In this document: positions 7,832 to 29,234 of the stretch, in pieces | Layout of the letters: each line of letters begins with the position of its first letter | How positions within the stretch are numbered: position 1 is the first letter of the stretch | Origin: Gryllotalpicola protaetiae | GTDB taxonomy: Bacteria; Actinomycetota; Actinomycetes; Actinomycetales; Microbacteriaceae | Assembly (NCBI RefSeq): GCF_003627055.1 | Contig: NZ_CP032624.1 | Span: 2,108,001 to 2,172,000 of the forward strand | Length of the DNA stretch: 64,000 bases | Direction: 5' to 3' | The notes under the pieces: generated by a model | What the model was told of the DNA's origin: nothing | What the model saw: only the letters and a program-made list of their open reading frames with translations | Databases searched by the model: none | Program-made: the position numbers and the translations under genes

Positions 7832-7854
7832 CTGGCTATACTTTTGCAAGTTAG
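7832..7854. promoter_or_regulatory. Set-1 inverted repeat upstream of aldo/keto reductase
   Basis: CTGGCTA-N9-AAGTTAG fits the family CTRACTT-N9-AAGTYAG in 5 of 7 left and 7 of 7 right arm positions. A second symmetry, GCAAG-N6-CTTGC (7847-7862), overlaps it. It lies 72 bp upstream of the reductase GTG. Probable regulator-binding site; the likely binder is one of the HxlR proteins of this window. Confidence 0.5.
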
Positions 7855-7925
7855 GGCTTGCGAGCTGCGCCTTGCCGGCGCGATGGGCTGGACTCGCAGT
7901 TCGCGATCGAAAGGGAGGATCGCTA

Positions 7926-9020
7926 GTGCGGTACACGACTTTTGGCAGCAAATCTGGACTCCGCGTCTCGGAACTCGGTCTGGGAACGTCAAACTTCGGC
8001 ACGAAGTGGGCGACCGGCACGGACAAGGCCGGGTCACTGGCAATCCTCGATCGTTTCGGAAAGGCAGGCGGGACATTCATCGACACCGCCGACACCTACC
8101 AGCAGGGGGACTCCGAACTTTACCTAGCCGACTTCCTCGCAAACGACCGTGACCACTTCGGCGTGGCGAGCAAATTTACCTTCGGTACCGCGGGCCAGAC
8201 CGGGGTCGGCAAGACGGGCAACAGCCGGAAGGCGATGAAACAGTCGCTCGAGGCAACACTCCGGCGCCTGAGCACCGACTTCCTTGATCTCTATTGGGTG
8301 CATAGCCCCGACTTCGTGACCCCGATCGACGAGGTTGTCGAAGGCCTTGACGACCTTGTTCGGGCCGGCAAGATCCTCTACGGCGGGCTCTCGAACTTCC
8401 CTGCATGGCAGGTCGCCGAAGCCGTCACGGCGTCTCGCGCGTTCGGGCGCAACCCGATCATCGGAACACAGTTCGAGTACAGCCTGGCCGCGCGCGACGG
8501 CGAGCGGGATCTGATCCCGATGGCGGAGTCTCTGGGACTGGGCGCGGCCCTGTATTCACCGCTCGGTGGCGGCCTCCTGACGGGCAAGTACCGGCTCAGC
8601 CCAGAGGGACGGCTGACAACGCTGAACTCGATCATCCAGCGCGAAGACACGCAGCTGAAGACCGCGGTGGTGGACACCCTGCTCGCCCTCAGCGCAGAGA
8701 CCGGGCTGGAGCCGGCGGTGCTGGCCATCGCGTGGCTTCGGGCCCGGAACGTGCGATCCGCAACCGCGCTGGTTGCGATCGTCGGGCCTCGGACTCTCGC
8801 ACAACTGGACTCGTATCTGGCGGCGCTCGAGGTGGAGTTGGAGGACGAGCACTATCGCCGACTCGATGAGGCGAGCCGGCCCGTCCTCGGCATCCCGCAC
8901 GACTCGGGCATCGAGACCCGCAACGCAGTACTTGGCGGAATCGCCGCCGGATTCGTGTTGCCTGCCGGCCCTCGAGCGGTTCCCGCTGCGCGCGCAGATG
9001 AAGGGGCTCATGGTGCCTGA
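7926..9020 (+). CDS. Aldo/keto reductase
   Basis: A 364-residue (beta/alpha)8 oxidoreductase using NAD(P)H to reduce aldehydes or ketones. The catalytic tetrad is visible: Asp and Tyr in FIDTADTYQQG, Lys in VASKFTFG and His in DLYWVHSPD; the coenzyme-binding C-terminal part includes TALVAIVGPRT. Start GTG 7926 has AGGGAGG 7 bases upstream. The last 12 bases overlap the next gene's start region, which suggests an operon with the reductase homologue and the zinc-finger protein. It lies behind a set-1 inverted repeat, so induction by electrophiles is plausible. Confidence 0.9.
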   Translation: MRYTTFGSKSGLRVSELGLGTSNFGTKWATGTDKAGSLAILDRFGKAGGTFIDTADTYQQGDSELYLADFLANDRDHFGVASKFTFGTAGQTGVGKTGNSRKAMKQSLEATLRRLSTDFLDLYWVHSPDFVTPIDEVVEGLDDLVRAGKILYGGLSNFPAWQVAEAVTASRAFGRNPIIGTQFEYSLAARDGERDLIPMAESLGLGAALYSPLGGGLLTGKYRLSPEGRLTTLNSIIQREDTQLKTAVVDTLLALSAETGLEPAVLAIAWLRARNVRSATALVAIVGPRTLAQLDSYLAALEVELEDEHYRRLDEASRPVLGIPHDSGIETRNAVLGGIAAGFVLPAGPRAVPAARADEGAHGA

Positions 9021-10695
9021 CTTGGCTGCGGGGCACACCTCCGCGAGCTTCTCCGCGGAGCAGCTCGCACGGCTTCGCGGCTATGGAACCGCGCACGAGG
9101 TCGCCGCAGGGGAGGTGCTGTACGCGCCAGGGGATCCCGACTACGACCTGATCCTGGTGGATTCCGGCGAGGTCGAGGTCGTGCGTGTGGGGCGAGACGG
9201 CGGCCCCGATGAGGTCGTCGCCCACGAGCGGCAAGGCGGAATCCTGGGCGAGATGAGCCTGCTGAGCCGCCAGGCGGTCTATCTCACGGCGCGAGCCATC
9301 ACCGCGGGTGCGGTGTATCGAATCGACGGGCGGCAGCTTCGGCGGCTGATGTCCACGGATGCCGAGATTTCGGCGATCTTGCTGGATACCTTCATGAAGC
9401 GCCGCAACGAGTTGAAGGCCACCGCCGCGCGGTCGCTCGAACTGATCGGCGACGAACGCTCATCCGCGGCCCACGCGCTTCGCACCTATGCGGCTCGCCT
9501 ACAGCTGCCGCACCGCTGGCTCGATGCCGAGTCCGAAGACGGGCGCGCAGCACTTGGACGCGAGGAGATGGAGGTCGCGGACCTTCCGGTCGCCATCACC
9601 GCCTCAGGGGTGCTGCGCAGGGCTACTCCGGGCATGCTGGCTGAGCGGCTTGGATTGAGCTACCGACTCGGCGAGGAAACGACGAGTACCGACGTGGTGA
9701 TCGTGGGGGCGGGACCGGCTGGCCTCGCGGCTGCCGTCTACGCCGCGTCTGAGGGCCTTGCCACCGTGGTCCTCGACTCGGTCGGTCCCGGTGGGCAGGC
9801 TGCCGCGAGCTCTCGGATTGAGAACTATCTCGGCTTCCCCGCCGGGCTCAGCGGCGGAGACCTGTTGAGCCGGGCCCATACGCAGGCGCTGAAGTTCGGG
9901 GCGAGTGTCTTCAGCCCCTGTGAAGTGCAATCCCTGCGCAGTACCTCCACTGGCCACCGGGTCACACTGGGCGACGGCAACACGATCAAGGCTCGAGTGG
10001 TGATCTGTGCGTCCGGCGCCCGCTACCGCACACTGCCGCTGGAACGCTGGGCCGAGTTCGAGGGGGCCGGCATCTATTACGCCGCAACGGAGCTCGAGAC
10101 CAGGCGTCTGGACGGAAGCCCTGTGACCGTCGTCGGTGGCGCCAACTCGGCCGGCCAGGCGGCAATTTTCCTCGCCTCGAGGGGCTGCGAAGTCGATCTG
10201 GTCATCCGTGCGCCGCGCATCGGCGACGGCATGTCGGCCTACCTCGTCGACCGGATCCTCAGCGACAGCAGGATCGCGGTGCACACGTCAACGGAAGTGA
10301 CAGCGCTGCACGGAACAGGCTCCCTGGCGGCAGTGGACTTGACCAGCCGTGACGACGGCGATAGCCGCACGCACGAGAGCCGCGCACTGTTCTGCTTCAT
10401 CGGGGCCGTACCAGCGACGGAATGGATTGAGGGCGCCGCCAAGGATGAAGACGGTTTCGTCCTCACCGACAGCCAGATCCCCGCCGAAGAACTGCCGAGC
10501 GTCTGGGGCGCCCTCGGGTCGGGCCCTCTCCCTTTCGAGACGAGCATTCCGTCCGTTTTCGCAGTCGGCGATCTACGGCACGGCTCGATGAAGCGGGTCG
10601 CGGCCGCAGTCGGCGAAGGCGCTAGCGCTATCGCCTCAGCCCACCGCGCACTGACGCGGTTGGCCGCACTGAACGAGGAGGAGCAGCGCAGATGA
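9010..10695 (+). CDS. Cyclic-nucleotide-domain + thioredoxin-reductase-like FAD protein without CxxC
   Basis: A 561-residue fusion. Residues 8-135 are a cyclic-nucleotide-binding-type beta-barrel (LILVDSGEVEVV, GEMSLLS). A linker is followed by a pyridine-nucleotide disulfide reductase core: FAD motif VVIVGAGPAGLAAAVYA, NADPH motif VTVVGGANSAGQAAIFLA and the C-terminal VFAVGDLRHG. Where thioredoxin reductase has CATC, this protein has AATE (IYYAATELE), so both redox cysteines are gone and it cannot be a classical thioredoxin reductase. ATG 9010 is preferred for its AAGGGG site; ATG 8998 is possible. Its stop overlaps the zinc-finger gene. Confidence 0.85.
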   Translation: MVPDLAAGHTSASFSAEQLARLRGYGTAHEVAAGEVLYAPGDPDYDLILVDSGEVEVVRVGRDGGPDEVVAHERQGGILGEMSLLSRQAVYLTARAITAGAVYRIDGRQLRRLMSTDAEISAILLDTFMKRRNELKATAARSLELIGDERSSAAHALRTYAARLQLPHRWLDAESEDGRAALGREEMEVADLPVAITASGVLRRATPGMLAERLGLSYRLGEETTSTDVVIVGAGPAGLAAAVYAASEGLATVVLDSVGPGGQAAASSRIENYLGFPAGLSGGDLLSRAHTQALKFGASVFSPCEVQSLRSTSTGHRVTLGDGNTIKARVVICASGARYRTLPLERWAEFEGAGIYYAATELETRRLDGSPVTVVGGANSAGQAAIFLASRGCEVDLVIRAPRIGDGMSAYLVDRILSDSRIAVHTSTEVTALHGTGSLAAVDLTSRDDGDSRTHESRALFCFIGAVPATEWIEGAAKDEDGFVLTDSQIPAEELPSVWGALGSGPLPFETSIPSVFAVGDLRHGSMKRVAAAVGEGASAIASAHRALTRLAALNEEEQRR

Positions 10696-11057: not shown

Positions 11058-11062
11058 CCCCC

Positions 11063-11422: not shown

Positions 11423-11445
11423 CTGACTTTCGTAATGCAAGTCAG
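11423..11445. promoter_or_regulatory. Set-1 inverted repeat upstream of osmC, perfect arms
   Basis: CTGACTT-N9-AAGTCAG has perfect 7-bp arms and the same 9-nt spacer as the site at 29212. A TAACGT box (11451-11456) follows at 5 bp, so the repeat covers the -35 region and spacer of the osmC promoter. A second small repeat, CTAAC-N7-GTTAG (11450-11466), overlaps the -10. Confidence 0.7.
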
Positions 11446-11480: not shown

Positions 11481-11906
11481 ATGAAAGCTATCGGGACGTC
11501 ACATTGGGCTGGCACGTGGCGCGGCGGAGCCGGCACCATTTCCACGCAAAGCGACGCGCTCAGCGAAGTTCCGTACACGTACCAGACTCGGTTCGCGGAC
11601 GAGCATGGTGTAGCGCCGGAAGAACTCCTGGCCGCAGCTCATGCGTCGTGCTTCAACCAGGCTCTGGCGAACAACCTCGATCGCGCAGGGTTGGCGGCCT
11701 CGGCGATCGCCACCGTGGTCGAGGTGAGTTATGGGATCACGCCCGCCGGGCGGCCGACGATCGAGGGCTCGCACATCGCCGTCACGGCAACCGTTCCCAG
11801 CACCACCGACGCGGACTTCGCCGAGCTCGCGGAGCGGTCAGCTCGTGGCTGCGCGATCTCGCGCGTGCTGTCGTGCGACATCACAGTGACCGCCACGCTG
11901 CGCTGA
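11481..11906 (+). CDS. osmC: OsmC-family peroxiredoxin
   Basis: A 141-residue thiol peroxidase of the OsmC/Ohr superfamily. Both active cysteines are visible, one in AAHASCFNQAL and one in ARGCAISRVLSCD, together with the N-terminal WAGTWRGGAGTIST segment. OsmC enzymes detoxify organic and inorganic hydroperoxides using lipoylated or dithiol donors. ATG 11481 has a GAGGAAGG site. A perfect set-1 inverted repeat sits directly upstream of the -10, so this is a strong candidate target of an HxlR-type thiol-sensing regulator. It precedes an SDR gene by 62 bp. Confidence 0.85.
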   Translation: MKAIGTSHWAGTWRGGAGTISTQSDALSEVPYTYQTRFADEHGVAPEELLAAAHASCFNQALANNLDRAGLAASAIATVVEVSYGITPAGRPTIEGSHIAVTATVPSTTDADFAELAERSARGCAISRVLSCDITVTATLR

Positions 11907-15990: not shown

Positions 15991-16707
15991 ATGGTTTCTT
16001 TGAACAACGCCGTCGTTCTCGTCACCGGCGCGAATGGCGGCCTCGGGCGAGAGTTCGTCGCCCAAGCGCTGCAGCGAGGGGCTGCCAAGGTCTATGCCAC
16101 CGCGCGGACTCCGCAGGAGTGGAGAGATCCGCGAGTGGTCGCCTTGAGGTTGGACGTGACTGACTCCGAGTCGATTGCCGCGGCAGCGGCCGAGGCAGCT
16201 GACACCACCGTCGTGGTGAACAACGCCGGGATCTACCGCCTGGAGGACCATCTCATCTCCTCTACGACGGAAGAGATTCGGGCGATGTTCGAGACCAACT
16301 TCTTCGGTCCCGTCGAGGTGGTGCGCCGCTTCGCTCCGGTGCTGGCGCGCAACGGCGGTGGTGCTGTCCTAGACGTTCATTCCGTGCTGAGCTGGATCGG
16401 CCTGGCGGGCTCGTACAGTGCGGCGAAGGCGGCACTGTGGTCGGCGACCAACTCGTTCCGCCTGGAGCTGGCCGGCCAGGGCACCCATGTGACCGGACTC
16501 CACGTCGGATACATCGACACGCCGATGATCGCCGCCGTCGACGCCCCCAAGAACGACCCGGCCGACGTCGTCAAGGCAGCGCTGGATGGCGTCGAGGCTG
16601 AGGAGTACGAGGTACTTGCTGATGAGCTGACCGTCAACGTCAAGGCTGGGCTGTCCGCCCGAATCGAGGATCTCTACTCGGAGCTTGCGGCCACTCGCGC
16701 CAACTAG
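15991..16707 (+). CDS. SDR-family oxidoreductase
   Basis: A 238-residue classical SDR with TGANGGLG, NNAG (about residue 75), catalytic Ser in VHSVLSW and SYSAAKAA as the Tyr/Lys site. It is the nearest relative in the window of the SDR at 13102. It probably uses NADPH on a small carbonyl compound. ATG 15991 is preceded by GAAAGAGG. Its 3' end faces the convergent hxlR gene with only 3 bp between them, and its promoter holds a set-1 repeat, so it belongs to the proposed HxlR-controlled set. Confidence 0.85.
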   Translation: MVSLNNAVVLVTGANGGLGREFVAQALQRGAAKVYATARTPQEWRDPRVVALRLDVTDSESIAAAAAEAADTTVVVNNAGIYRLEDHLISSTTEEIRAMFETNFFGPVEVVRRFAPVLARNGGGAVLDVHSVLSWIGLAGSYSAAKAALWSATNSFRLELAGQGTHVTGLHVGYIDTPMIAAVDAPKNDPADVVKAALDGVEAEEYEVLADELTVNVKAGLSARIEDLYSELAATRAN

Positions 16708-17249: not shown

Positions 17250-17272
17250 GTGGATATTGAAATGCAAGTCAG
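17250..17272. promoter_or_regulatory. Set-1 half site before hxlR
   Basis: The right arm AAGTCAG with the conserved GC before it is intact; the left arm (GTGGATA) matches poorly. It ends 2 bp from the TAGCGT -10 box of the leftward hxlR gene, the same placement as in the other set-1 promoters. Confidence 0.4.
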
Positions 17273-17300: not shown

Positions 17301-17323
17301 CTAGCTTGCGTTTTGATAGTCAG
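17301..17323. promoter_or_regulatory. Set-1 inverted repeat before crotonase gene
   Basis: CTAGCTT-N9-TAGTCAG matches the family at 6 of 7 left and 6 of 7 right positions. A TATTTA -10 box (17325-17330) follows at 1 bp, so a protein bound here would overlap the -35 region of the crotonase promoter. Confidence 0.6.
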
Positions 17324-17340: not shown

Positions 17341-18204
17341 ATGTCATTCCTCAACTCCTTCCGCCCCGAGCAGTTCCGGCTCACGGCTGAGTCCGACACG
17401 TTCTGGCGCGTCACATTCACGAACCCCCCGGTGAACGTCATCGGTCCCGCAATGATCCGCGAGCTCAAGGAGCTCCTGACCGAACTCGAGACCGACCCGG
17501 GCGTGAACGTCGTCGTCTTCGACAGCGACAACCCCGACTACTACCTCGCCCACTACGACCTCGTGGCGAACCCGGCCGAGGCCGAATCTCTGCCCAGTCC
17601 CACCGGCTTCGCGGCCTGGCCGGACGTCCTGGTGCGCCTCAGCAAGATCCCGGCGGTCACGATCAGCGCCATCCGTGGGATTGCTCGCGGCGCCGGGAGC
17701 GAGTTCGTACTCGCCACCGACATCCGCTTCGCCAGCCGGGAGAAGGCGATCCTCGGCCAGATGGAGGTCGGCTTCAGCGCCCTGCCGGGCGGGGGAGCGC
17801 AGGCCCGGCTCAGCCCACTGGTCGGCCGGGCCCGCAGCTTCGAGATCCTCCTGAGCGGGTCGGACTTCGACGGGGACCTCGCCGAGCGATACGGCTACGT
17901 GAACCGGGCCGTTCCCGATGCGTCGTTCACGCAGTTCGTCACAGACTGGGCGACCCGCGTCTCGAAGTGGGACCCCCGCGTCATCCGCGAGATTAAGGCG
18001 GCCGTCAACGCGGTCACACTGCCCGCGGACGCCCTGTTCCCGCCCCAGTCTGACGCGTTCTGGGCAGCGGCCGCCCAGCCTCGCTTCCAGGCGGTAAAGG
18101 ATGCCCTGGTCGCCCAGGGCCTCCAGCAGATCAGCGACATCGAGCTCAACCTCGGCGACCAGATCGCCGAGGTCGCCGAGAAGGCGTTTGCGGAGATCCA
18201 GTAA
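17341..18204 (+). CDS. Enoyl-CoA hydratase/isomerase (crotonase) family protein
   Basis: A 287-residue crotonase-fold protein. Both acidic residues that matter in enoyl-CoA hydratase are kept: Glu in ARGAGSEFVLATDIRFAS and Glu in LGQMEVGF, followed by PGGGAQARLSPLVG. The substrate may be a CoA thioester, but the sequence DSDNPDYYLAHYDL and the C-terminus differ from beta-oxidation enzymes and match a clade often linked to HxlR regulators. ATG 17341 (or GTG 17335) lies only a few bases after the -10, so the transcript is nearly leaderless. Paralogue of 25147-25992. Confidence 0.8.
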   Translation: MSFLNSFRPEQFRLTAESDTFWRVTFTNPPVNVIGPAMIRELKELLTELETDPGVNVVVFDSDNPDYYLAHYDLVANPAEAESLPSPTGFAAWPDVLVRLSKIPAVTISAIRGIARGAGSEFVLATDIRFASREKAILGQMEVGFSALPGGGAQARLSPLVGRARSFEILLSGSDFDGDLAERYGYVNRAVPDASFTQFVTDWATRVSKWDPRVIREIKAAVNAVTLPADALFPPQSDAFWAAAAQPRFQAVKDALVAQGLQQISDIELNLGDQIAEVAEKAFAEIQ

Positions 18205-18259: not shown

Positions 18260-19510
18260 GTGAGCTCCCACTCGACCTTGACCGGCACAACAGGACGTGA
18301 AGACCCGGCTCCGGCCGCGCAATACAGGAGCGGGCGACGCGCTCTGGCGTTCGTCGGCATGTCATGGGTATCGATCGCGTTCGTCGCGGCATCCGCGGCA
18401 CCGTCGCCGTTGTACGTCCTCTACCAGGCCGAGTGGCACTTCAGCTCATGGCTGCTCACGTTGGCGTTCTCCGTCTACGCGTTCACGCTCCTGATCGCGT
18501 TGCTCTTCGCGGGCTCGCTGTCCGACTACCTGGGCCGCCGACCCGTTCTTCTCGGCGCGATCACTCTGGAGCTGATCGCACTCGCAGGCCTCCTGTGGGC
18601 CGGAGACGTCGAATGGGTGATCCTCGCTCGCGCCCTCCAAGGCTTCGCGACCGGCGTTGCCACCGCCTCAGTATCGGCCGCGCTCACCGACTTGTCACCC
18701 CCTAGCAACCGACAGCTCGGCGCAACCGTCGCAAGCGTCACCCCGCTGGCGGGCCTGACCGTTGGTGCCCTCACAGCCGGAATCGTGATTCAGGCGACGC
18801 AGACACCGATCCGCAACGTATTCGCCGGGCTGATCGTCGCACTTGTCGTCGGCGGAGCATTTGTGCTCGTGTCGCCAGAAACAGTTGGCTACAGCCGTGG
18901 CGCGGCAGCGAGCATCGTCCCTCGGCTCGCCATCCCCCGCGCCTCGAGGCCGGCATTCATCGCCAGCTCATTCCTGAACGTCGCCGTGTGGCTGACGACG
19001 TCATTCGTCCTCGGGCTGCTCCCGCAGATCGACCGGACCGCCTTTGGCGTCAGCAGCGGGCTTGCCAACGGCGGCATCGTGGCGCTGCTGACCGCATCCG
19101 GTGCGACGGCCGTCGTGGTCTCGCGCAACCTCGCGCCTCGTCGCAGCGCATTAGTGGCCGCAACGGCCCTCGCCTCCGGGGCGGTCATCGACGCAATTGC
19201 GATCTTCAGTGGGCATCTGGGCCTCTTCATCGCGGGCTCGGTGGTCGCGGGCGCCGGCGTTGGCGTCGGCTTCGGGGGGTACATTCGCCTTGTCATGCAG
19301 ACCGCTGATGCTAGACACCGGAGCGGCCTGTTCTCCGCGATGTATGTGGTGAGCTATCTCACCTTCGGGCTGCCCGTTATCGTCGCGGGCCTCCTGGCCA
19401 GCACGTTCACAACGCCGGCGGTCGCCATCGCCTATTGCGCGCTGACAGTGGTCTTCTCCGCGCTCGGCCTCGTATCCATTAATAGGTACTCGCAACGCCG
19501 TCGGGCGTGA
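18260..19510 (+). CDS. MFS transporter
   Basis: A 416-residue 12-helix transporter of the DHA1 type: loop motif SDYLGRRPVLLGA between helices 2 and 3, ARALQGFATGVATA in helix 4 and a GLFSAMYVVSYLTFGLP helix near the end. It is related to the MFS protein at 53600-54859, which has the same SDYxGRRPVLxGA and SYLxFGxP elements. GTG 18260 has GAAGGA upstream and leaves a 35-residue cytosolic N-terminus. Following the crotonase gene, it may export the product or the toxic substrate handled there. Confidence 0.8.
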   Translation: MSSHSTLTGTTGREDPAPAAQYRSGRRALAFVGMSWVSIAFVAASAAPSPLYVLYQAEWHFSSWLLTLAFSVYAFTLLIALLFAGSLSDYLGRRPVLLGAITLELIALAGLLWAGDVEWVILARALQGFATGVATASVSAALTDLSPPSNRQLGATVASVTPLAGLTVGALTAGIVIQATQTPIRNVFAGLIVALVVGGAFVLVSPETVGYSRGAAASIVPRLAIPRASRPAFIASSFLNVAVWLTTSFVLGLLPQIDRTAFGVSSGLANGGIVALLTASGATAVVVSRNLAPRRSALVAATALASGAVIDAIAIFSGHLGLFIAGSVVAGAGVGVGFGGYIRLVMQTADARHRSGLFSAMYVVSYLTFGLPVIVAGLLASTFTTPAVAIAYCALTVVFSALGLVSINRYSQRRRA

Positions 19511-20730
19511 AACCCATGAGCGATCGCCATGCGCTTCGCGAGGGAACGCCAGACCCTGAGCGCGTGACGTATGTCGAGCTGTTCTTCGACCTCGTTTTCG
19601 CCTTCGCCATCACACAGGTCTCCGGCGTCCTCGGCCCCCACCCGATGCCAGAGCACCTCGCCGAGGCGCTCGTGATCACCCTGGCGGTCTGGTGGGTGTG
19701 GGTGTACACCACATGGGCGACGAACTGGCTGAACCCCGACCGGCGGCCGATCCTGTGGCTGCTGCTCATCCTCACCGCGATTGGTCTGGTCATCAGCGAA
19801 GCGATCCCCGAGGCATTCAACTCGAAGGCGCCGCTGTTCGTCGCGGGCTATCTTGCCTTCGGGGCTGTGCGCACCGTGGGGGTGATCGCAGCGACACGGC
19901 GGAGGGCCCCTGAGATCGCGCGCGGACAGCTGCGGATCCTCGCCTGGAGCGGGGCAGCCGCTGTCGCCTGGATCTCTGGGGCGCTGGCGCCCGACGAGCG
20001 CGGGCGCCTCCTCCTGTGGGCGCTTGCGGTACTTCTCGAGTACACCGGCCCCGCGTCGTTGTTCTGGGTCCCCGGCCGCGGGCGGTCCGGATGGGATTCG
20101 TGGAAGATCCGCGGCGGTCACTTCTCGGAGCGATCGGCCCTCTTCGTCATCATCGTCCTCGGCGAGTCGATCCTGGTCATCGGCCGAGCTCTCAGCGAAG
20201 AGCGCGCCGGTGCCGGCGTCGTGTCGGCCGCGTTCTGTGCTTTCGCCAGTGCCGTTCTAATGTGGTTCCTCTATTTCGCGCACGGTCAGGAATATGGGCG
20301 TCGATTCATCTCGGCCCGCCCGGTGACGGGCCCCGTCGCTCGGGTGTCGTACACGTACCTTCACGCGGTCCTGGTCGTCGGGCTCGTCTTCGCGACGCAC
20401 GGGTCGGAGCTCGCACTAGAGGCACCACGGGAGCCCGCGGACGCGATGTTCGACCTGCTCATGGTCGGAGGGACGGCCTTATATCTGCTCGGACTGCTGT
20501 CGTTCAAGGCGTCAGTTGGAGTGCGACTGCGCTCGGTCCCGGGTCACATCGTTGGCGCATTCCTGCTGCTGCCTGTCCTGCTCATCGCCGCTCTCGGATC
20601 CACCAAACCGAGCCGCCTTACGCTCGCGGTGAGCGTGACTGCGATCCTCGGCGCCGTCGTTGCCGCTGACGAGTACTTCTGGGTGCAGCGACAACGCCCC
20701 AGCCGAGAGACGACTACGGAGCATGGATAG
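19507..20730 (+). CDS. ltrA: Low-temperature-requirement A (LtrA) family membrane protein
   Basis: A 407-residue membrane protein with about 11 hydrophobic helices and the LtrA hallmarks YVELFFDLVFAFAITQVS near the N-terminus, W-V-W-V-Y-T-TWATNW, and GHFSERSALFVIIVLGESIL in the middle. The family was named from a Listeria cold-growth gene; its transport or sensing function is unproven. The start overlaps the MFS stop by 4 bp (ATGA), indicating translational coupling with the exporter. Confidence 0.85.
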   Translation: MKPMSDRHALREGTPDPERVTYVELFFDLVFAFAITQVSGVLGPHPMPEHLAEALVITLAVWWVWVYTTWATNWLNPDRRPILWLLLILTAIGLVISEAIPEAFNSKAPLFVAGYLAFGAVRTVGVIAATRRRAPEIARGQLRILAWSGAAAVAWISGALAPDERGRLLLWALAVLLEYTGPASLFWVPGRGRSGWDSWKIRGGHFSERSALFVIIVLGESILVIGRALSEERAGAGVVSAAFCAFASAVLMWFLYFAHGQEYGRRFISARPVTGPVARVSYTYLHAVLVVGLVFATHGSELALEAPREPADAMFDLLMVGGTALYLLGLLSFKASVGVRLRSVPGHIVGAFLLLPVLLIAALGSTKPSRLTLAVSVTAILGAVVAADEYFWVQRQRPSRETTTEHG

Positions 20731-20785: not shown

Positions 20786-21238
20786 TCACCATGTCCCGGC
20801 AACTTGGTGCACTGCGACGTTGAGACGGTTCCAGACGTTGATGCTTGCAATGGTGACGAGGAGGCCGGCGAGCTCGGACTCAGTGAAATTGTCGGCTGCC
20901 GCCTGCCAGATGGAGTCAGGCACGGGGTCGGGGCGGTCGCTGAGGCGCGTGACGGCCTCGGAGAGCGCGAGCGCAGCGCGCTCCGCACCGGTGAAATGCG
21001 GTGCATCCCGCCAGGCGGCGACAGCGAATATCCGGTCATCGCTTTCACCGGCGTTCTTCAGCCTCGTTGAGTGGTCAAGTACGCAGAAACTGCAGCCATT
21101 GACCTGGCTTGCGCGCAGGCTCACAAGCTCTCTGAGCTGCGATGAGAGGCCGGCGTTCTCGGCAGACATTGACAGCGCCTGTAACGCCTTGAGGGCACCC
21201 GGCAACGTCGCCACGGGATGCTTGATTCGGGGTTCCAT
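20786..21238 (-). CDS. Carboxymuconolactone decarboxylase/AhpD-like protein
   Basis: A 150-residue all-helical protein with the AhpD redox signature NGCSFCVLDHS (CxxC followed by His) and the C-terminal IASINVWNRLNVA. Such proteins reduce peroxides or act as thiol relays. In actinobacteria a CMD-family protein is often encoded beside a SigJ-type ECF sigma factor, exactly as here with the divergent gene at 21325. A perfect palindrome lies in the shared promoter region. Confidence 0.85.
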   Translation of the reverse strand: MEPRIKHPVATLPGALKALQALSMSAENAGLSSQLRELVSLRASQVNGCSFCVLDHSTRLKNAGESDDRIFAVAAWRDAPHFTGAERAALALSEAVTRLSDRPDPVPDSIWQAAADNFTESELAGLLVTIASINVWNRLNVAVHQVAGTW

Positions 21239-21282
21239 GAGATTCGCGTCCTTTTGTTTTCGTCACACCCACGGTTTGCCGG

Positions 21283-21301
21283 GGGTCATTACGTATGACC
21301 C
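21283..21301. promoter_or_regulatory. Perfect palindrome between CMD and sigJ genes
   Basis: GGGTCAT-N5-ATGACCC: 7-bp arms, spacer TACGT, located 24 bp upstream of the sigJ ATG and 45 bp upstream of the divergent CMD start. It is unlike the other operator families in this window and may bind a separate regulator of this pair. Confidence 0.55.
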
Positions 21302-21324
21302 GCCATTGCAAGGAGATGTGACCG

Positions 21325-22194
21325 ATGACAGAGACATTCCTCTCTGACCAGTTCAGACAGCACCGGAAACGATTGCACGGCATCGCCTATCGGATGCTCG
21401 GCACCGCATCGGACGCGGACGATGCCGTACAGGAGACTTGGCTCAGGCTCGACAGCTCCGATGTGGCCTCGATCGACAACTTAGCCGGCTGGCTCACGAC
21501 CGTGACCGCTCGGATATGCCTGAACATGCTGCGCTCGCGCGCAGCGCGGAGGGAAGAATCATTGGACGCCCACATTCCTGATCCGATCTTGCAAAGGGCG
21601 ACGGCGAGCGATCCTGAAGGTGAGGCAGTCCTCGCGGATTCTGTGGGACTTGCACTGCTCCTCGTCCTCGATACGTTGACCCCGGCTGAGCGACTTGCCT
21701 TTGTGCTTCACGACGTATTCGCTGTCCCCTTCGACGAGCTCGCCGCGTTGCTCGACCGAACGCCGGATGCGACACGCCAGCTCGCAAGCCGAGCCCGTCG
21801 CCGCGTACGGGTGGCGACCGTCCCAGATTCCGATCGTGGCCGTCAGCGGGAGGTCGTCGAGGCCTTCTTCGCTGCCGCGCGCGGAGGCGACATCGGGCCG
21901 CTTCTGGCGGTCCTCGACCCTGAGGCGGTAATGCGCGTAGACGGAGGACCGACGCTCCCCTCGGGGGTTACACGCGGCGCGAACGTGATTGCTCGACGGG
22001 CCATGATGTTCGCCCGGCCAGACGCAGTCCTGGTACCGGTCCTCGCGACCGGTAGCCCCGCTGTCGTCGTCGTTGTGGGCGGCGAGGTCAGGTCGATCAT
22101 GAGCTTTACCGTGATGCAAGGCAGGATCACCGCTATCGACGCGCTCAACGACCCGGACCGCATCCGGCATGTCGATCTCTCCGAGCTAGCGTGA
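21325..22194 (+). CDS. sigJ: ECF sigma factor, SigJ type (ECF41-like)
   Basis: A 289-residue sigma factor. Region 2 is clear (AYRMLGTASDADDAVQETWLR), region 4 follows (PAERLAFVLHDVFAVPFDEL), and residues 175-289 form the SnoaL/NTF2-like C-terminal domain typical of SigJ/ECF41, which replaces a conventional anti-sigma factor. Near its end ALNDPDR carries the DPDK-like motif of the family in modified form. ECF41 factors usually control an adjacent COE, CMD or oxidoreductase gene; here the divergent AhpD-like gene is the obvious target. SD AAGGAG precedes ATG 21325. Confidence 0.9.
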   Translation: MTETFLSDQFRQHRKRLHGIAYRMLGTASDADDAVQETWLRLDSSDVASIDNLAGWLTTVTARICLNMLRSRAARREESLDAHIPDPILQRATASDPEGEAVLADSVGLALLLVLDTLTPAERLAFVLHDVFAVPFDELAALLDRTPDATRQLASRARRRVRVATVPDSDRGRQREVVEAFFAAARGGDIGPLLAVLDPEAVMRVDGGPTLPSGVTRGANVIARRAMMFARPDAVLVPVLATGSPAVVVVVGGEVRSIMSFTVMQGRITAIDALNDPDRIRHVDLSELA

Positions 22195-23331: not shown

Positions 23332-24114
23332 AACGCAAGCAGTGTTGCCGGCGACCTCGAGAACGTACGTGCGTTCGTGACTGGGGGGTCGAGCGGTCTT
23401 GGTCGCGCGATGGCGCACGCCTTGGTACATGCAGGTGCTCGTGTGGCGGTGTCGAGCCGCTACGAGCAACGAGCTCGTGCCGCCGCCGATGAGCTTGGCC
23501 CTGGAGCGGTGGGCGTGCCTCTGGACGTGCAGGACGTCGAGTCGGTGTCGGCTGCCATCGATGCGGTCTACGAGACCCTCGGTGGTATCGATCTCTTGGT
23601 GAACAACGCCGGGATCGGAATGAGGTTTGTTAACCCACGCTTCATGACCGAGCCGCAGCCGTTCTGGAAGGTCTCCGATACCGGTTTTCGTGAGGTGGTC
23701 ACGACGAAGCTCGTCGGAACCTTCTTGGTCAGCCAGGCAGTTGTGCCACGCATGCTCGCTGACGGCTCCGGGAGGATAGTCACAGTCTCGATGAGCGAGA
23801 CCACAATGACTCGCCGCGGCTTTGCCCCGTATGGACCGTCCGGGGCGGCCGTCGAAGCTCTCGCAAGAGTGATGGCCGCCGACCTTGAGGGCACCCCACT
23901 CACGGCAAACATCCTCTTGCCAGGAGGGGCGACAGCGACGGGCATGGTGCCCGATGAAATTGACGAGGAGGCACGCGCTCGGCTGTTGGACCCGGCAATC
24001 ATGGGGCCCCCGATCGTCTGGCTCGCCTCCGCCGCGGCCGCGGGCGTCCACGACGAGCGCATCGTCGCGCGCAGCTTCGCCGCGTGGTTGAACGCTCGCG
24101 GGCAAAAGGCCTAA
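23329..24114 (+). CDS. SDR-family protein with altered catalytic Lys
   Basis: A 261-residue Rossmann-fold protein with TGGSSGLGRAMA, NNAG and VSMSETT (Ser). At the active site it reads FAPYGPSGAAV: Tyr is kept but the Lys four residues later is Gly, so activity as a normal dehydrogenase is doubtful. There is also an insertion (RFMTEPQPFWKVSDTGF) before helix E. It sits behind an AT-rich leaderless promoter and its stop overlaps the marR start (TAATG), so the two form a self-regulated unit. Confidence 0.8.
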   Translation: MNASSVAGDLENVRAFVTGGSSGLGRAMAHALVHAGARVAVSSRYEQRARAAADELGPGAVGVPLDVQDVESVSAAIDAVYETLGGIDLLVNNAGIGMRFVNPRFMTEPQPFWKVSDTGFREVVTTKLVGTFLVSQAVVPRMLADGSGRIVTVSMSETTMTRRGFAPYGPSGAAVEALARVMAADLEGTPLTANILLPGGATATGMVPDEIDEEARARLLDPAIMGPPIVWLASAAAAGVHDERIVARSFAAWLNARGQKA

Positions 24115-24600: not shown

Positions 24601-25068
24601 CTACTGCGGGTAGGTAGAGGTGCGCACCCACTGGATGTTGTCCACCGGTCGCAGCGCCTTGACATCCTCGACGAAGCCCACGCGCACCGGGCGGTGGCCG
24701 TCAGCGCTGACGCGCAGCTGGGTCGCGCCCGCGGGATACGGGACGTAGTCGTCGCCCCACTGCTGCAAGGCCGCCAGCACGACGAGCAGCTGCTTGCCCG
24801 CTTCGGTCGGGTGATAGCTCATGCGAGGTCGCCCGCCGGGCTCGCGGTACTCCCGCTTCTCCAAGACGCCCGCCTCCGTCAAGGTCGCCAGCCGACTCGT
24901 CAAGATGTTCGGGGCGATCCCCAGCGCGTCGCTGAATTCGCTGAACCGGGTCGCCCCCTCGATGAGAGCCTCTCTCAGGATCAGGAACGTCCAGCGCTCA
25001 CCGACCACACCAAGCGTCCGTTCGATCGAGCAAAACGCATCCGCGGCCGGAGTTGTGATTTCACTCAT
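24601..25068 (-). CDS. HxlR-family regulator with N-terminal cysteine
   Basis: A 155-residue HxlR protein: FCSIERTLGVVGERWTFLIL at the N-terminus with the single Cys in the sensing position, the winged helix (FSEFSDALGIAPNILTSRL, KREYREPGGRPRMSYH) and a C-terminal helix plus short tail. It resembles the HxlR protein at 16711. ATG 25068 looks leaderless, with TATTGT 7 bases upstream; GTG 25077 lies inside that -10 box. A degenerate set-1 repeat directly precedes the promoter, and the next leftward gene upstream of it is a crotonase. Confidence 0.85.
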   Translation of the reverse strand: MSEITTPAADAFCSIERTLGVVGERWTFLILREALIEGATRFSEFSDALGIAPNILTSRLATLTEAGVLEKREYREPGGRPRMSYHPTEAGKQLLVVLAALQQWGDDYVPYPAGATQLRVSADGHRPVRVGFVEDVKALRPVDNIQWVRTSTYPQ

Positions 25069-25083
25069 AGCCGCCACAATAGG

Positions 25084-25146: not shown

Positions 25147-25992
25147 CTACCTGCCTACCGCCGGCGGCGGGGCGATAGCTGCCAGCCGCGCGCCGAGGTT
25201 GAGTTCGGTCGGCCCGTACTCCTGCAGCCCGTCGGCGAGAAGCTCTCCCGCTCGAGCTTGGGTCTCGGGCCTGGAGACCGACCGCCAGAATGCATCCATC
25301 TGAGCCGGGAATTCGTCATCGGGCGGGAGTGAGACAGCGTTCACAAACTGCTTGACCTCGTGCAGTGCGCGTACATCGAATTTCGAGACCCGCTCGGCGA
25401 ACTCGTTCACGAAGCCGTCGAGTTCCTCATCCGGGAGGGAGCGGTTCACGTAGCCGTACCGCTCCGCGATCTCGCCGTCGAAGTCGCCCCCGGTCACGAG
25501 GATCTCCAGGGCGCGCCCTCGCCCGACGAGGCGGGGGAGTCGCGACGAGGGTCCCCCGCCGGGGACCGCGCCTGTCCCGATCTCGAATTGCCCGAGGATC
25601 GCCTTCTCCCGGCTGGCGAAGCGGATGTCCGTCGCGAGTACGAACTCGCTGCCGGCCCCACGCGCCCGGCCTCTGATCGAGCTCACCGTGACCGCCGGCA
25701 GGCGGCTCAGCCGGATCAGGATGTCAACCCAGGGGTGGTAGCCCGTAGGGCCTGGCGGCAGATCGCCCACCAAGGCTGGATCCGCGGCGATATCCCAGTG
25801 CGCCAGAAAGAAATCCGGATTGGCGGTCTCGAACACGACCACCGCAACGTACCGATCTTTTTCCAGATCCTCAAGCAGTGCCCTCATCTCCCGCACCATC
25901 TGCGGACCGATGAGGTTGATCGGCGGGGCATCGAAAGTCACGCGCCACAGTGCGGCCGAATCCCGCACAACTCGTAGCTGTTCTTGTTCCAC
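25147..25992 (-). CDS. Enoyl-CoA hydratase/isomerase (crotonase) family protein
   Basis: A 281-residue crotonase with the two key acidic residues kept (RGAGSEFVLATDIRFAS and LGQFEIG) and PGGGPSSRLPRLVG. It is a clear paralogue of 17341-18204, sharing for example WRVTF and RGAGSEFVLATDIRFASREK. GTG 25992 is preferred: TACTGT ends 7 bases upstream and a set-1 repeat covers the -35. A longer TTG-led frame to 26028 would place the operator inside the gene. It precedes the second hxlR in the same direction with a 78-bp gap. Confidence 0.8.
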   Translation of the reverse strand: MEQEQLRVVRDSAALWRVTFDAPPINLIGPQMVREMRALLEDLEKDRYVAVVVFETANPDFFLAHWDIAADPALVGDLPPGPTGYHPWVDILIRLSRLPAVTVSSIRGRARGAGSEFVLATDIRFASREKAILGQFEIGTGAVPGGGPSSRLPRLVGRGRALEILVTGGDFDGEIAERYGYVNRSLPDEELDGFVNEFAERVSKFDVRALHEVKQFVNAVSLPPDDEFPAQMDAFWRSVSRPETQARAGELLADGLQEYGPTELNLGARLAAIAPPPAVGR

Positions 25993-26923: not shown

Positions 26924-26932
26924 GTCGCTGCC

Positions 26933-27808
26933 TTACTTGTTGTGCGTGGTCGACGAGGCGGCGCGCTCGATCAGCGATGCGATCGCTTTCGGCTGCTCGA
27001 GCATGGACAGGTGATCGGCCTTGCCCGTCACGATGGTGCCGTGCGCGCGCTGAGCCATGGCGACCTGCTCCGCGGTGGGGATGACCTTGTCGTCGGTTCC
27101 GATGTAGAACCAGCTCGGGAGGGTCTTCCATGCGGCACCCGTGGCGGGCTCGTTCAGCGCACCAACGGAGATCGCCGACTCGGTAGCGGCCAGACCCGCG
27201 GCTTCCTGCTTGGGGAGGTCGGCGCCGAAGATACCGGCGAACAGCGAGCGCTTGATGTAGACGTCGACGTCGCCCGCGGGCTGCGCAGGGTCCTGCACGA
27301 AGTCGAAGATCGACGTCGGGTCGGCCGCCAGCGCCGAGCCGGGCTTAGCGCCTGCCAGATCAACGATGGTCTCGCCGGTAGCCGGCGCGAACGCATCCAC
27401 GTAGACGAGGCCCTTCACGGTCGGAGCGGAGAGGGCGGCCTCGCTGATCACGGCGCCGCCGTAGGAGTGGCCGACGAGGATCACAGGGCCGGAGGTGGCC
27501 TGGTTCACGAACGCCGCGACCGAGGCGGAGTCCGACGCGAGCCCGCGAAGCGGGGTCGGCGCGCTGAGCACCGTGTAGCCGTCTGCGATCAGGCGCGAGG
27601 TGATAGGGGCGAAGCTCGAGGCATCCGCCCAAGCTCCGTGAACGAGGACGATCGTCGGCTTAGGTGCCAGGTGGCTGGGAGCCTGCGCGTGATGCGCCGC
27701 GTGATCGGTGTTGGCGAACGCGGTCGTCGCGGGGATCAGTGCGGCCGTAGCGGTAGCCGCGGCGATGCCGATGGTGAGGGCCAGACGGCGACGGGGGGTG
27801 CGAGACAT
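26933..27808 (-). CDS. Secreted alpha/beta hydrolase
   Basis: A 291-residue protein with a typical export signal (basic SRTPRRRL, hydrophobic LTIGIAAATATAALIP, cleavage expected after TAFA) and a mature alpha/beta hydrolase: LVHGAWADASSF and nucleophile VILVGHSYGG. The catalytic His is in GKADHLSMLEQP. It is a relative of the cytoplasmic hydrolase at 15078. A compound could thus be hydrolysed outside by this enzyme and inside by its partner at 26132. ATG 27808 begins the signal peptide; the frame upstream contains the operator. Confidence 0.85.
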   Translation of the reverse strand: MSRTPRRRLALTIGIAAATATAALIPATTAFANTDHAAHHAQAPSHLAPKPTIVLVHGAWADASSFAPITSRLIADGYTVLSAPTPLRGLASDSASVAAFVNQATSGPVILVGHSYGGAVISEAALSAPTVKGLVYVDAFAPATGETIVDLAGAKPGSALAADPTSIFDFVQDPAQPAGDVDVYIKRSLFAGIFGADLPKQEAAGLAATESAISVGALNEPATGAAWKTLPSWFYIGTDDKVIPTAEQVAMAQRAHGTIVTGKADHLSMLEQPKAIASLIERAASSTTHNK

Positions 27809-27835
27809 TGCTGCTCCGAATTCAATAGAGAAGAA

Positions 27836-27849
27836 AGAACGTTCGTTCT
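27836..27849. promoter_or_regulatory. TetR-type operator, copy 1
   Basis: Perfect palindrome AGAACG-TT-CGTTCT lying 27 bp upstream of the secreted hydrolase gene. The same motif recurs at 27909 with 17 of 19 positions shared around it. The binder should be the divergent TetR protein at 27941. Confidence 0.7.
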
Positions 27850-27908
27850 GACAGGTGTGAACTAAACCAGAAAACAGGTGCGATGTCAACCAGAAATGCA
27901 AAACAGAA

Positions 27909-27922
27909 AGAACGGTCGTTCC
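27909..27922. promoter_or_regulatory. TetR-type operator, copy 2
   Basis: AGAACG-GT-CGTTCC, 18 bp upstream of the tetR GTG. Together with copy 1 it would let one repressor shut both the hydrolase operon and its own gene. Confidence 0.65.
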
Positions 27923-27940
27923 GCGTGCTATTTTTTTGGT

Positions 27941-28513
27941 GTGCCAGATACCAAAAAGGTCGTTCCCCGGCCCCGCGACCGCCTCCTCGATGTCGCTAGC
28001 GGCCTGTTCTACCGGGAGGGCATCACTTCGATCGGAGTCGACCGGATCCTGCTGGAAGCGAACGTGACCCGCACGACGCTCTATCGCCACTTCGGCGGCA
28101 AGGAAGGCCTGATCGTCGCCTATCTCAAGCGTGAAGACGAGCAACTGCGCGAGGCCTTTGCCGCCGCAGAGAACGGTGCCGAGTCACCAGGTCAGCTGCT
28201 CGCACTTGCTATCGACGGCATCGCCCTCGATGCGGCAAGACATCACACCCGCGGGTGCCCATTTATCAATGCGGCCGCGGAATACCCCGAAGCAGCCGGT
28301 CCAGTACGTCAGGTCGTCGCCGATCACCGGGAGTGGTTCCGCGCCTCACTCGAGCGCTACCTCACCGCGGGCGGACGGGCGGATGCCGCTGAAAAGGCGG
28401 ACGAACTCGTCATGTTGCGCGACGCCGTCCTCGTGGGCAGCTATCTCGATCAAGCCGAAACGGTGCAGCAGACCTATGGGAGGCTTGCCCGCTCGGTTGC
28501 GGGGCTTAGCTGA
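27941..28513 (+). CDS. TetR-family repressor
   Basis: A 190-residue TetR protein: helix-turn-helix in the first 55 residues (RDRLLDVASGLFYREGITSI, then TRTTLYRHFGGKEGLI) and a ligand-binding domain with the GCPFINAAAE motif that carries a conserved Cys. GTG 27941 follows a T-rich GCTATTTTTT stretch without Shine-Dalgarno, suggesting a leaderless start; the operator palindrome is 18 bp upstream. It most likely represses the divergent hydrolase operon and itself. Its 3' end overlaps the convergent tetR gene by 8 bp. Confidence 0.85.
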   Translation: MPDTKKVVPRPRDRLLDVASGLFYREGITSIGVDRILLEANVTRTTLYRHFGGKEGLIVAYLKREDEQLREAFAAAENGAESPGQLLALAIDGIALDAARHHTRGCPFINAAAEYPEAAGPVRQVVADHREWFRASLERYLTAGGRADAAEKADELVMLRDAVLVGSYLDQAETVQQTYGRLARSVAGLS

Positions 28514-29156
28514 CGGCGCCGCTCGTTGCGTACGACCGTAGGAGCGCCATGAACATCTCGAGCGCGTCCGCAAGCGGCGTCACGCTTCGAGTGGCCTGCG
28601 ACAGCACGGCTCCGCCCTCGAGCGCCGCCAGTGCGCTCGTCGCGAGTTTCTCTGCGCCGGCGGTTCTAGAGATCAGCCCTCGCTCCTGCATCACTCGAAT
28701 TCCCACCACGATCGGCTCCCGCCACCGCTCGAATCCCTCGCCGACTAGCTGGCGCCACTCGTCGTCCACCTCGGCAACCTGTCCAACAAGCGATCCGACT
28801 GGGCAACCCCCAACGCACGCATTCCGGAGCTGCACGCCGACCTGGTACTCACACCAGTGCTCGAACGCGTCAAACGAAGTGAGGTTGGACAGCAACGGCT
28901 CCTGCGCGTCAATCGTGGATTCGATCAGCTCATTGATCACAGCCGTGACGAGCTCCCGCCGATCGCCGAAATAATGCGTCAACTGCGATGGGCTGGCATT
29001 CGCCGCCGCTCTGAGTTCTTCAATGGTTGAGCTGGCGATGCCGTGCGCGTGCACGTAACTGGCTGCGAGCTCGACGATCCGCGTTCGAGTGGCGCGGCCC
29101 TTTGGGGTCAGATCCTCGGGACTGGGCGCTTGTCTGCGAACCGCTTGACTGCTCAC
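28506..29156 (-). CDS. TetR-family regulator
   Basis: A 216-residue TetR protein with a basic N-terminus (GRATRTRIVELAASYVHAHG), recognition helix SPSQLTHYFGDRRELV and a C-terminal domain containing CVGGCPVGSLVGQV, a motif shared with the TetR at 63160 (GGCAYGSLAGQL). GTG 29156 is chosen because TACGAT ends 6 bases before it; a second -10-like TAAAGT lies directly next to the set-1 repeat at 29212. Target genes are not certain; the divergent small protein gene is nearest. Confidence 0.8.
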   Translation of the reverse strand: MSSQAVRRQAPSPEDLTPKGRATRTRIVELAASYVHAHGIASSTIEELRAAANASPSQLTHYFGDRRELVTAVINELIESTIDAQEPLLSNLTSFDAFEHWCEYQVGVQLRNACVGGCPVGSLVGQVAEVDDEWRQLVGEGFERWREPIVVGIRVMQERGLISRTAGAEKLATSALAALEGGAVLSQATRSVTPLADALEMFMALLRSYATSGAVS

Positions 29157-29211
29157 GGCGACATCGTATGCGCGCCAAAGTGCCGGGCTGCGTTCCCCAA
29201 TCGACTTTAGC

Positions 29212-29234
29212 CTAACTTCTAATCCGCAAGTTAG
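29212..29234. promoter_or_regulatory. Set-1 inverted repeat between tetR and small isomerase-like gene, perfect arms
   Basis: CTAACTT-N9-AAGTTAG has perfect 7-bp arms and the 9-nt spacer. A TAAAGT box lies 2 bp beyond it in the tetR direction, and the divergent small gene starts 43 bp to the right. This and the osmC site are the best members of the family. Confidence 0.7.

What the first reader, a model, noticed from the sequence alone, without database searches (positions are those of the whole stretch)
7832..29234. One inverted-repeat family marks eight promoters and predicts an HxlR-type redox regulon
CTRACTT-N9-AAGTYAG, or degenerate forms with the same 9-nt spacer, occurs at 7832, 11423, 15865, 17250, 17301, 25084, 26011 and 29212. 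The arms are perfect at 11423 (osmC) and 29212 (tetR/YCII-like). In seven of the eight a TANNNN -10-like box begins 1-5 bp after the repeat, so the placement as well as the sequence is conserved. Two sites lie at the promoters of the two hxlR genes themselves, both of which keep the single N-terminal Cys of thiol-sensing HxlR proteins. The targets (OsmC, aldo/keto reductase, SDR, crotonases) fit electrophile or peroxide stress. I do not know this exact motif as a described operator.
Basis: partly seen in the sequence, partly recalled or inferred. Interest (0 to 1): 0.8.

Follow-up and report, generated by a model that had tools for sequence, protein, structure and literature searches.

The report
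Mobile HxlR regulon with shared operator
Nine similar DNA sites at the promoters of detoxification-type genes are very probably docking sites of HxlR-type regulators made in the same cluster, and the cluster sits on a piece of DNA that has inserted itself into the chromosome.

Summary
All eight repeats are in place; the pattern gives 9 hits in the window against 1.4 in shuffles, and each left-out site ranks within the top nine of the window. A ninth, weaker site (7735) precedes a tautomerase gene. A strict form occurs five times in the 3.68-Mb genome, all in this cluster.

HxlR as binder is well supported, without a binding experiment. A rearranged version of the cluster in another genus (G063) has 11 strict sites, all within 22 kb. 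Herbiconiux keeps sites at the hxlR and crotonase promoters. Crotonase genes carry a site almost only where an HxlR gene is near (12/22 against 1/55). A generic form precedes 38 of 80 HxlR genes of the clade holding both window HxlRs.

New: the cluster is cargo of a ~58-kb integrative conjugative-like element in tRNA-Met, with integrase, relaxase, coupling protein, 41-bp border repeats and an empty site in a relative.

Open: which HxlR binds which site, the inducer, repression or activation. Redox sensing is plausible, not shown.

The parts
7735..7757 (-). ninth, weaker operator-like site, before the tautomerase gene
   Evidence: matrix score 18.0, ninth in the window
7249..7677 (-). Tautomerase_3 family protein
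   Evidence: PF14832, 2.6e-45
7832..7854 (+). operator, upstream of an aldo/keto reductase; no -10-like box after it
7923..9020 (+). aldo/keto reductase (start codon assumed)
   Evidence: PF00248; the 75% identical Herbiconiux gene also has a site (L087 9961)
11423..11445 (+). operator with perfect arms, upstream of osmC
11481..11906 (+). OsmC-family peroxiredoxin
   Evidence: PF02566, TIGR03562
15078..15785 (-). alpha/beta hydrolase, divergent from the SDR
   Evidence: PF12697
15865..15887 (.). operator between the divergent hydrolase and SDR genes
   Evidence: SDR homologue in G063 also has a site (L195 10310)
15991..16707 (+). short-chain dehydrogenase
   Evidence: PF00106
16711..17235 (-). 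HxlR1, regulator, 174 aa, single Cys (C20)
   Evidence: PF01638, 49.8 bits against cut-off 20.8
17250..17272 (-). operator at the hxlR1 promoter, 14 nt before the ATG
   Evidence: not among the 3-mismatch hits
17301..17323 (+). operator at the ech1 promoter, 17 nt before the ATG
17341..18204 (+). ECH1, crotonase-fold protein (ATG chosen by likeness to relatives; an in-frame GTG lies 6 nt before it)
   Evidence: PF00378; PDB relative 3h0u
18266..19510 (+). MFS transporter (start assumed), probably in one unit with ech1 and ltrA
   Evidence: PF07690; same order in Herbiconiux, 65% and 59% identical
19507..20730 (+). LtrA-family membrane protein
   Evidence: PF06772, 4.4e-79
24601..25077 (-). HxlR2, regulator, 158 aa, single Cys (C16)
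   Evidence: PF01638, 66.4 bits
25084..25106 (-). weak operator at the hxlR2 promoter, 15 nt before the ATG
   Evidence: similar asymmetric arms in Herbiconiux (L087 13928)
25147..25992 (-). ECH2, crotonase-fold protein (GTG start assumed)
   Evidence: PF00378
26011..26033 (-). operator at the ech2 promoter, 18 nt before the assumed GTG
28506..29156 (-). TetR-family regulator (start assumed inside ORF 28506-29384)
   Evidence: PF00440 and PF21993
29212..29234 (.). operator with perfect arms between tetR and the 88-aa gene
29278..29544 (+). 88-aa protein of no known family
   Evidence: no Pfam or NCBIfam match
29886..29926 (+). attR-like 41-bp copy of the tRNA-Met 3' end: right border of the integrated element

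Best explanation
The repeats are operators of the cluster's own HxlR regulators. A winged-helix HxlR dimer would bind the two ACTTGC cores, 11 bp apart, of CTNACTTGC-N5-GCAAGTNAG. The operator covers the stretch where the -35 and the spacer should lie; a TA-starting -10-like box follows, and at the crotonase and hxlR genes of the window the start codon comes 14-18 nt after the repeat, so these transcripts are probably leaderless. Bound HxlR would block RNA polymerase and repress its own gene, the crotonases, OsmC, reductases and hydrolases. Modification of the single N-terminal Cys by an electrophile or oxidant would release it. The genes travel as cargo of an integrative conjugative-like element in tRNA-Met. 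Shown by sequence: motif, placement, conservation, link to HxlR genes, element borders. Inferred: binding, repression, leaderless start, redox switch, inducer.
For: Motif and placement. Strict CTRRCTW-N9-WAGYYAG without mismatch: G000 5 of 5 places in the cluster, G063 11 of 11 in C1:176333-197912, Herbiconiux G322 3 of 3 in one 6.4-kb stretch; control 0, 0 and 3; none in same-genus G001-G003 (control 0, 0, 1) or G024 (control 0). Sites before related genes: ech1, hxlR1 and ech2 in window, G063 and Herbiconiux; hxlR2 in window and Herbiconiux; osmC and SDR in window and G063; AKR in window and Herbiconiux. Crotonase genes with a site of score 16 or more upstream: 12 of 22 with an HxlR within 3 kb against 1 of 55 without (Fisher 2e-7; 77 loci scored; the exception has an HxlR 3.9 kb away); at cut-offs 14, 18 and 20: 14, 11, 9 of 22 against 2, 1, 1 of 55. 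Generic repeat before 39 of 111 HxlR genes against 0.012 expected per region; 38 of 80 in the clade with both window HxlRs, 1 of 25 in the short canonical clade, 0 of 6 others. Cys in 80 of 80 of that clade. TA 0-7 nt after the site in 19 of 21 chosen promoters. In DNA-bound B. subtilis HxlR the recognition helices are 34.8 A apart (passages of PMC7835342), about one turn, which fits cores 11 bp apart.
Against: No binding or expression data. The matrix comes from the sites themselves and the cut-offs were chosen after seeing the data. Related genomes are not independent. 42 of 80 clade HxlRs lack the generic repeat by my rule, among them the window's own two, whose sites are degenerate. In 299 family genomes the CTNACTTGC form is rare and no commoner than its control (4 against 6 genomes). 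Herbiconiux has as many control hits as strict hits (3 and 3). Both HxlRs are present in window, G063 and Herbiconiux, so they cannot be told apart there; the own genome has seven PF01638 matches in all, two of them partial, and the others are not excluded. The Cys is also present in 22 of 31 HxlRs outside the clade, so it is no special mark. Site 7832 lacks a -10 box. HxlR-family proteins can activate (B. subtilis HxlR; HypR marked as activator in a table of PMC10458429).
Confidence: 0.75

Rival explanations
1. The sites belong to another regulator of the cluster (one of two TetR proteins, the MarR protein at 24084, or the ECF-type sigma factor at 21325), and the HxlR genes are merely fellow targets.
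For: These genes lie in the same cluster, and one TetR promoter carries a perfect site (29212).
Against: Of 14 HxlR/crotonase loci that I chose out of 25 with an HxlR, 13 show HxlR homologues but none of these four other regulators at E<1e-8; L091 has a TetR27878 homologue. The generic repeat follows one HxlR clade across many loci. A palindrome does not suit a sigma factor.
Confidence: 0.1
2. HxlR binds, but as an activator or as a ligand-responsive switch that is not redox-controlled.
For: B. subtilis HxlR is activated by formaldehyde and turns its target on (passages of PMC7835342); no inducer is known here; crotonases, hydrolases and transporters also fit breakdown or export of a xenobiotic.
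Against: The site overlaps the -35/spacer region, which suits a repressor; the Cys is invariant in 80 of 80; OsmC and reductases fit electrophile stress. The Cys-x-Lys pair of the formaldehyde sensor is absent (C-P-I and C-S-I).
Confidence: 0.3
3. The repeats are a promoter or composition by-product, or a dispersed repeat element, with no regulator.
For: Left arms resemble -35 boxes; promoters are AT-rich.
Against: Symmetric arms with varying spacer, scrambled matrices give 0.085 hits, strict sites absent elsewhere in the genome, kept position in distant genera.
Confidence: 0.03

Closest known systems
YodB/CatR/HypR of Bacillus subtilis (MarR/DUF24 = HxlR family thiol sensors)
   Same: Small winged-helix dimers with a reactive N-terminal Cys; regulons of reductases and detoxification enzymes; two paralogues on one promoter (CatR and YodB on catDE; PMC6212828, passages)
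   Different: Window HxlRs are 158-174 aa, nearest in PDB by sequence to 4gcv and PA1607 (2f2e) rather than YodB; the short canonical clade lacks the CT...AG repeat in 24 of 25 cases. Operator sequences of YodB, CatR and HypR were not compared: papers not held
QorR of Corynebacterium glutamicum
   Same: Redox-sensing regulator of a quinone oxidoreductase (so named in PMC6306002 and its reference list, passages); in G063 a site lies before a zinc-binding-dehydrogenase/quinone-oxidoreductase-like gene (L080 2413; PF00107; the quinone name is my reading)
   Different: Paper not held, so its operator was not compared; its HxlR/DUF24 membership is recalled
HxlR of Bacillus subtilis, formaldehyde sensor
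   Same: Same Pfam family; conserved Cys
   Different: Uses Cys11-x-Lys13; the window proteins have Cys-Pro-Ile and Cys-Ser-Ile
Actinobacterial integrative and conjugative elements in tRNA genes (kind recalled)
   Same: Tyrosine integrase beside the tRNA, relaxase, coupling protein, direct repeats at both ends
   Different: Carries a multi-promoter HxlR regulon as cargo; transfer not tested

Membership tests
HxlR (PF01638) regulators | HxlR-type winged-helix domain | tested here: met
   49.8 and 66.4 bits against cut-off 20.8
HxlR thiol sensors (YodB/CatR/HypR/QorR type) | conserved Cys near the N-terminus | tested here: met
   C20 and C16, the only Cys of each; same column Cys in 80 of 80 clade members, and in 22 of 31 others
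HxlR thiol sensors (YodB/CatR/HypR/QorR type) | operator in the regulator's own promoter | tested here: met
   by sequence only: 17250 and 25084; also L087 8798 and 13928, L080 9728
HxlR thiol sensors (YodB/CatR/HypR/QorR type) | DNA binding changed by oxidants, quinones or HOCl | not testable with these tools
   needs protein
HxlR thiol sensors (YodB/CatR/HypR/QorR type) | same operator sequence as YodB, CatR or QorR | not tested
   source papers not held
formaldehyde-sensing HxlR | Cys-x-Lys pair on helix 1 | tested here: not met
   C-P-I and C-S-I against the FNCEKEL peptide of B. subtilis HxlR
integrative and conjugative element | tyrosine integrase beside a tRNA and direct repeats at both borders | tested here: met
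   PF00589 at L202 2894-4033 next to tRNA-Met; 41-bp exact repeat 58.4 kb apart
integrative and conjugative element | relaxase and coupling protein | tested here: met
   PF08751 TrwC (L203 3668-6547) and PF12696 TraG-D_C (L202 12370-14175)
integrative and conjugative element | empty site in a relative | tested here: met
   in 1 of 6 relatives with the repeat: in G003 the tRNA-Met runs on into sequence that matches window 29927-29978 at 46 of 52 bases; the other five matched only at the repeat; G002 had no match
integrative and conjugative element | excision and transfer | not testable with these tools
   needs cells

The most novel reading that the evidence does not exclude
A portable regulon: a mobile element brings a detoxification cluster of about nine operator-bearing promoters together with its own HxlR regulators and a private operator that the host chromosome hardly uses, so the circuit can work in a new host without touching host genes. 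The operator is one version of a 23-bp repeat (CT...T...A...AG with paired arms) used by a whole clade of longer actinobacterial HxlR proteins.
Probability: 0.45. Interest if true: 0.65.

Novelty: new variant of a known kind. Interest (0 to 1): 0.5.

Why it matters
HxlR proteins are common in the genomes looked at (5 to 12 Pfam matches in each of six), but the listings of nine paper searches in an open-licence library showed me no operator described for this longer clade. A 23-bp repeat that can be recognised by eye would make target prediction possible for many of them. The cluster is also a case of a mobile element that carries a multi-promoter stress-type regulon together with its own regulators, and it points to a crotonase-OsmC gene pair (12 of 17 ECH1-type loci, Actinobacteria and Proteobacteria) whose role is unknown to me.

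Tried and rejected
Looser consensus CTNRCTTGC-N5-GCAAGYNAG with 3 mismatches in the own genome: 28 places against 61 for the control, useless. CTNACTTGC-N5-GCAAGTNAG with 1 mismatch in 299 family genomes: 4 genomes with a match (G000, G220, G224, G307) against 6 with a control match; this form is not spread through the family. HxlR2 homologues in 59 relatives: 31 with a match at 1e-10; HxlR1 homologues in 299 family genomes: 33 with a match at 1e-20. A first look for palindromes before HxlR genes counted arm symmetry only and mixed in GC-rich hits; replaced. An attempt to split HxlR subtypes by regular expression was poor (33 of 73 against 6 of 38); replaced by a tree. Search for residues that go with operator base 5: best z 3.9, several columns near 3, relatedness not removed; inconclusive. 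I hoped G063 would separate HxlR1 from HxlR2, but it holds both. Nine proteins of the window's mobile element were sought around the G063, Herbiconiux and G024 clusters (about 130, 100 and 60 kb): no match, so no copy of this element was seen there. Papers on QorR, CatR/YodB and HypR operators are not held. Structure prediction was not used.
Full report
OBSERVATION. With up to three mismatches CTRACTT-N9-AAGTYAG matches the window nine times (seven of the eight, 7735, and 329 outside the cluster); 100 shuffles average 1.44 and reach 5 at most. A symmetric matrix built from the eight puts those eight first among all window positions, then 7735 at 18.0 and the next at 14.6. This is circular, so each site was left out in turn: ranks were 8, 1, 6, 8, 3, 9, 4 and 7, and the only other position that outranked a left-out site was 7735. 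Scrambling the columns of the matrix while keeping the symmetry gave 0.085 hits on average in 200 trials against 9. The consensus reads CTNACTTGC-N5-GCAAGTNAG. Site 7735 lies before a Tautomerase_3 gene and is probably a ninth member.

PLACEMENT. TA begins within 0-5 nt of the repeat, in a gene's direction, in 7 of 8 sites (7% of random positions). For four genes the start codon follows at once: 17 nt at ech1 and 14, 15 and 18 nt at hxlR1, hxlR2 and ech2 (sequences; I chose the start codons, so the 'first ATG/GTG' column differs in places). I then laid out 21 crotonase and hxlR promoters from the window and thirteen other loci; three of these sites score under 18 (L091 15.1, L094 17.0, L099 14.6). 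TA begins 0-7 nt after the site in 19 of the 21. The ech1 match begins 16-17 nt after the site in Herbiconiux, in five mycobacterial loci with a score of 15 or more and one at 14.6, in Lentzea and in Actinoplanes; three further ech1 loci with an HxlR near (L100, L102, L103) have no site there. Such promoters are best read as site, -10 box, leaderless start. The -35 would then fall in the left arm (TTGCNN); this is inference.

GENOME. The strict form CTRRCTW-N9-WAGYYAG without mismatch occurs at 5 places in the 3.68-Mb genome, all in this cluster; at 11 places in G063, all between 176333 and 197912 of one contig; at 3 places in Herbiconiux daphne, all in one 6.4-kb stretch. Controls: 0, 0 and 3. 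Three same-genus genomes and G024 have none (controls 0, 0, 1 and 0). Degenerate sites elsewhere cannot be excluded: with two mismatches there are two further places in the own genome, and 3077000 and 3079755 score 16. Not every result pointed this way: the CTNACTTGC form with one mismatch is found in 4 of 299 family genomes against 6 for the control, so the regulon in this form is rare in the family. The family itself is unnamed in the tools; Microbacteriaceae is my guess.

CONSERVATION. G063 holds most of the cluster in another order: ECH1 (81% identical), HxlR1 (46%), OsmC (59%), the SDR at 11.8 kb (59%), the alpha/beta hydrolase at 15 kb (67%), and next to these ECH2 (73%), HxlR2 (57%), SDR (64%), LtrA (51%), MFS (48%) and the two hydrolases of 26-28 kb (60% and 67%). 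Matrix scores of 21 or more occur at 16 places there, 8 in L080 and 8 in L195, among them ech1, hxlR1, osmC, ech2 and SDR promoters. Herbiconiux (L087) has five of 22 or more: hxlR1, the divergent akr/ech1, hxlR2, ech2 and a hydrolase. The asymmetric weak site of hxlR2 is similar in both (GTAGCTTTC on one arm, GCAACTCAG or GCAATTCAG on the other).

WHO BINDS. Crotonase relatives were collected from genomes of 84,980 species: 115 stretches encoded a relative, the best 80 were kept, 78 distinct loci; 77 could be scored (L136 has no upstream DNA). A site of score 16 or more lies within 160 bp upstream in 12 of 22 loci with an HxlR gene within 3 kb and in 1 of 55 without; that one has an HxlR 3.9 kb away. 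Other cut-offs (14, 18, 20) give 14, 11 and 9 of 22 against 2, 1 and 1 of 55. The loci are related to one another. Scanning upstream of 111 distinct HxlR genes for a generic CT...T...A...AG repeat with at least 5 of 7 arm pairs found 39, with 0.012 expected per region from 873,428 other positions. On a tree 38 of these are in the 80-member clade that contains HxlR1 and HxlR2, 1 among 25 short canonical HxlRs, none in 6 others. The 111 were gathered by likeness to HxlR1/HxlR2, by the Pfam model in six genomes, or by lying in the crotonase loci, so they are not a random sample. In 13 of 14 loci chosen from the 25 with an HxlR, none of the window's TetR, MarR and sigma proteins has a homologue. 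Both HxlRs occur in all three rich clusters. In G024 and Streptomyces galbus (L108) an HxlR2-like protein (66% and 63%) sits with a site at ech2, so HxlR2 probably reads ech2 sites; the rest is open. The own genome has seven PF01638 matches, two of them partial; the HxlRs outside the cluster are not excluded.

HOW IT WORKS. Most likely repression by occlusion, released by modification of the single Cys. The Cys is invariant in the clade (80 of 80) and common outside it (22 of 31). In B. subtilis HxlR bound to DNA the recognition helices are 34.8 A apart (PMC7835342, passages), about one DNA turn, as for cores 11 bp apart. The formaldehyde switch of that protein needs Cys-x-Lys, which is absent here. 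The inducer is unknown; OsmC, reductases, a tautomerase and, in G063, a zinc-binding-dehydrogenase/quinone-oxidoreductase-like gene point to electrophiles or organic peroxides, but crotonases, hydrolases and transporters would also fit breakdown of a xenobiotic. ECH1-type crotonases have an OsmC gene within about 2 kb in 12 of 17 loci, ECH2-type in 0 of 60.

THE CARRIER. G+C is 0.655 for window 1-29926 and 0.695 for the rest (profile with dips on both sides). At 29886-29926 lies a 41-bp exact copy of the 3' end of a tRNA-Met whose intact gene is 58.4 kb to the left (G000 C1:2079496-2079572). Near that gene stands a tyrosine integrase, then a TraG-type coupling protein; a TrwC relaxase lies further right. 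In same-genus G003 the tRNA-Met runs directly into sequence that in the window lies beyond 29926 (46 of 52 bases; 93.5% over 92 bp if the repeat is counted); the other five relatives with the repeat matched only at the repeat, and G002 had no match. The cluster is therefore cargo at the right end of an integrated element. None of nine element proteins was found around the G063, Herbiconiux or G024 clusters, so the cluster is not tied to this element. A third copy of the repeat at 47 kb is unexplained.

LITERATURE. The listings of nine paper searches (the lists of 16, 38, 39 and 56 were cut) showed no paper that by title or abstract describes this operator or an operator for this HxlR clade. 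The library holds open-licence papers only, and the papers on QorR, CatR/YodB and HypR that I asked for are not in it. I read passages, not whole texts, of PMC8063818, PMC6212828, PMC10458429, PMC6306002, PMC6943732 and PMC7835342.

VERDICT. A real operator family, very probably of HxlR regulators, in a known kind of system, with a clade-wide form of the operator and a mobile carrier that were not in the finding. Binding, sign of control and signal remain to be tested.

Noticed in passing
window 47088-47154: A third copy of the tRNA-Met 3' end, 67 bp of identity that runs on into the sequence after the intact tRNA gene; with the copy at 29886 it frames a 17-kb stretch. Perhaps the remains of another insertion.
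   Followed up: partly
window 29576-29587: A second, degenerate tRNA T-arm-like stretch (GGGTTCGAGTCC) left of the attR-like repeat.
   Followed up: no
L202 16467-18779 (G000 C1 2094467-2096779), minus strand: Element gene with an nSTAND3 domain and a restriction-endonuclease-like (Mrr) domain: looks like an anti-phage defence gene on the same element.
   Followed up: no
L087-L103: ECH1-type crotonase genes have an osmC gene within about 2 kb in 12 of 17 loci, in Actinobacteria and Proteobacteria, also where no HxlR was found in the locus.
   Followed up: partly
L087 13977-14276: Herbiconiux has a further HxlR-like frame between ech2 and hxlR2 (37% to HxlR2).
   Followed up: no
G000 C1 3077000 and 3079755: The same operator-like 23-mer occurs twice, 2.75 kb apart; the flanking matrix hits are also the same, so this looks like a repeated stretch.
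   Followed up: no
window 20786-22194: Carboxymuconolactone-decarboxylase-like gene divergent from an ECF-type sigma factor gene inside the cluster, without an operator-like site between them.
   Followed up: no
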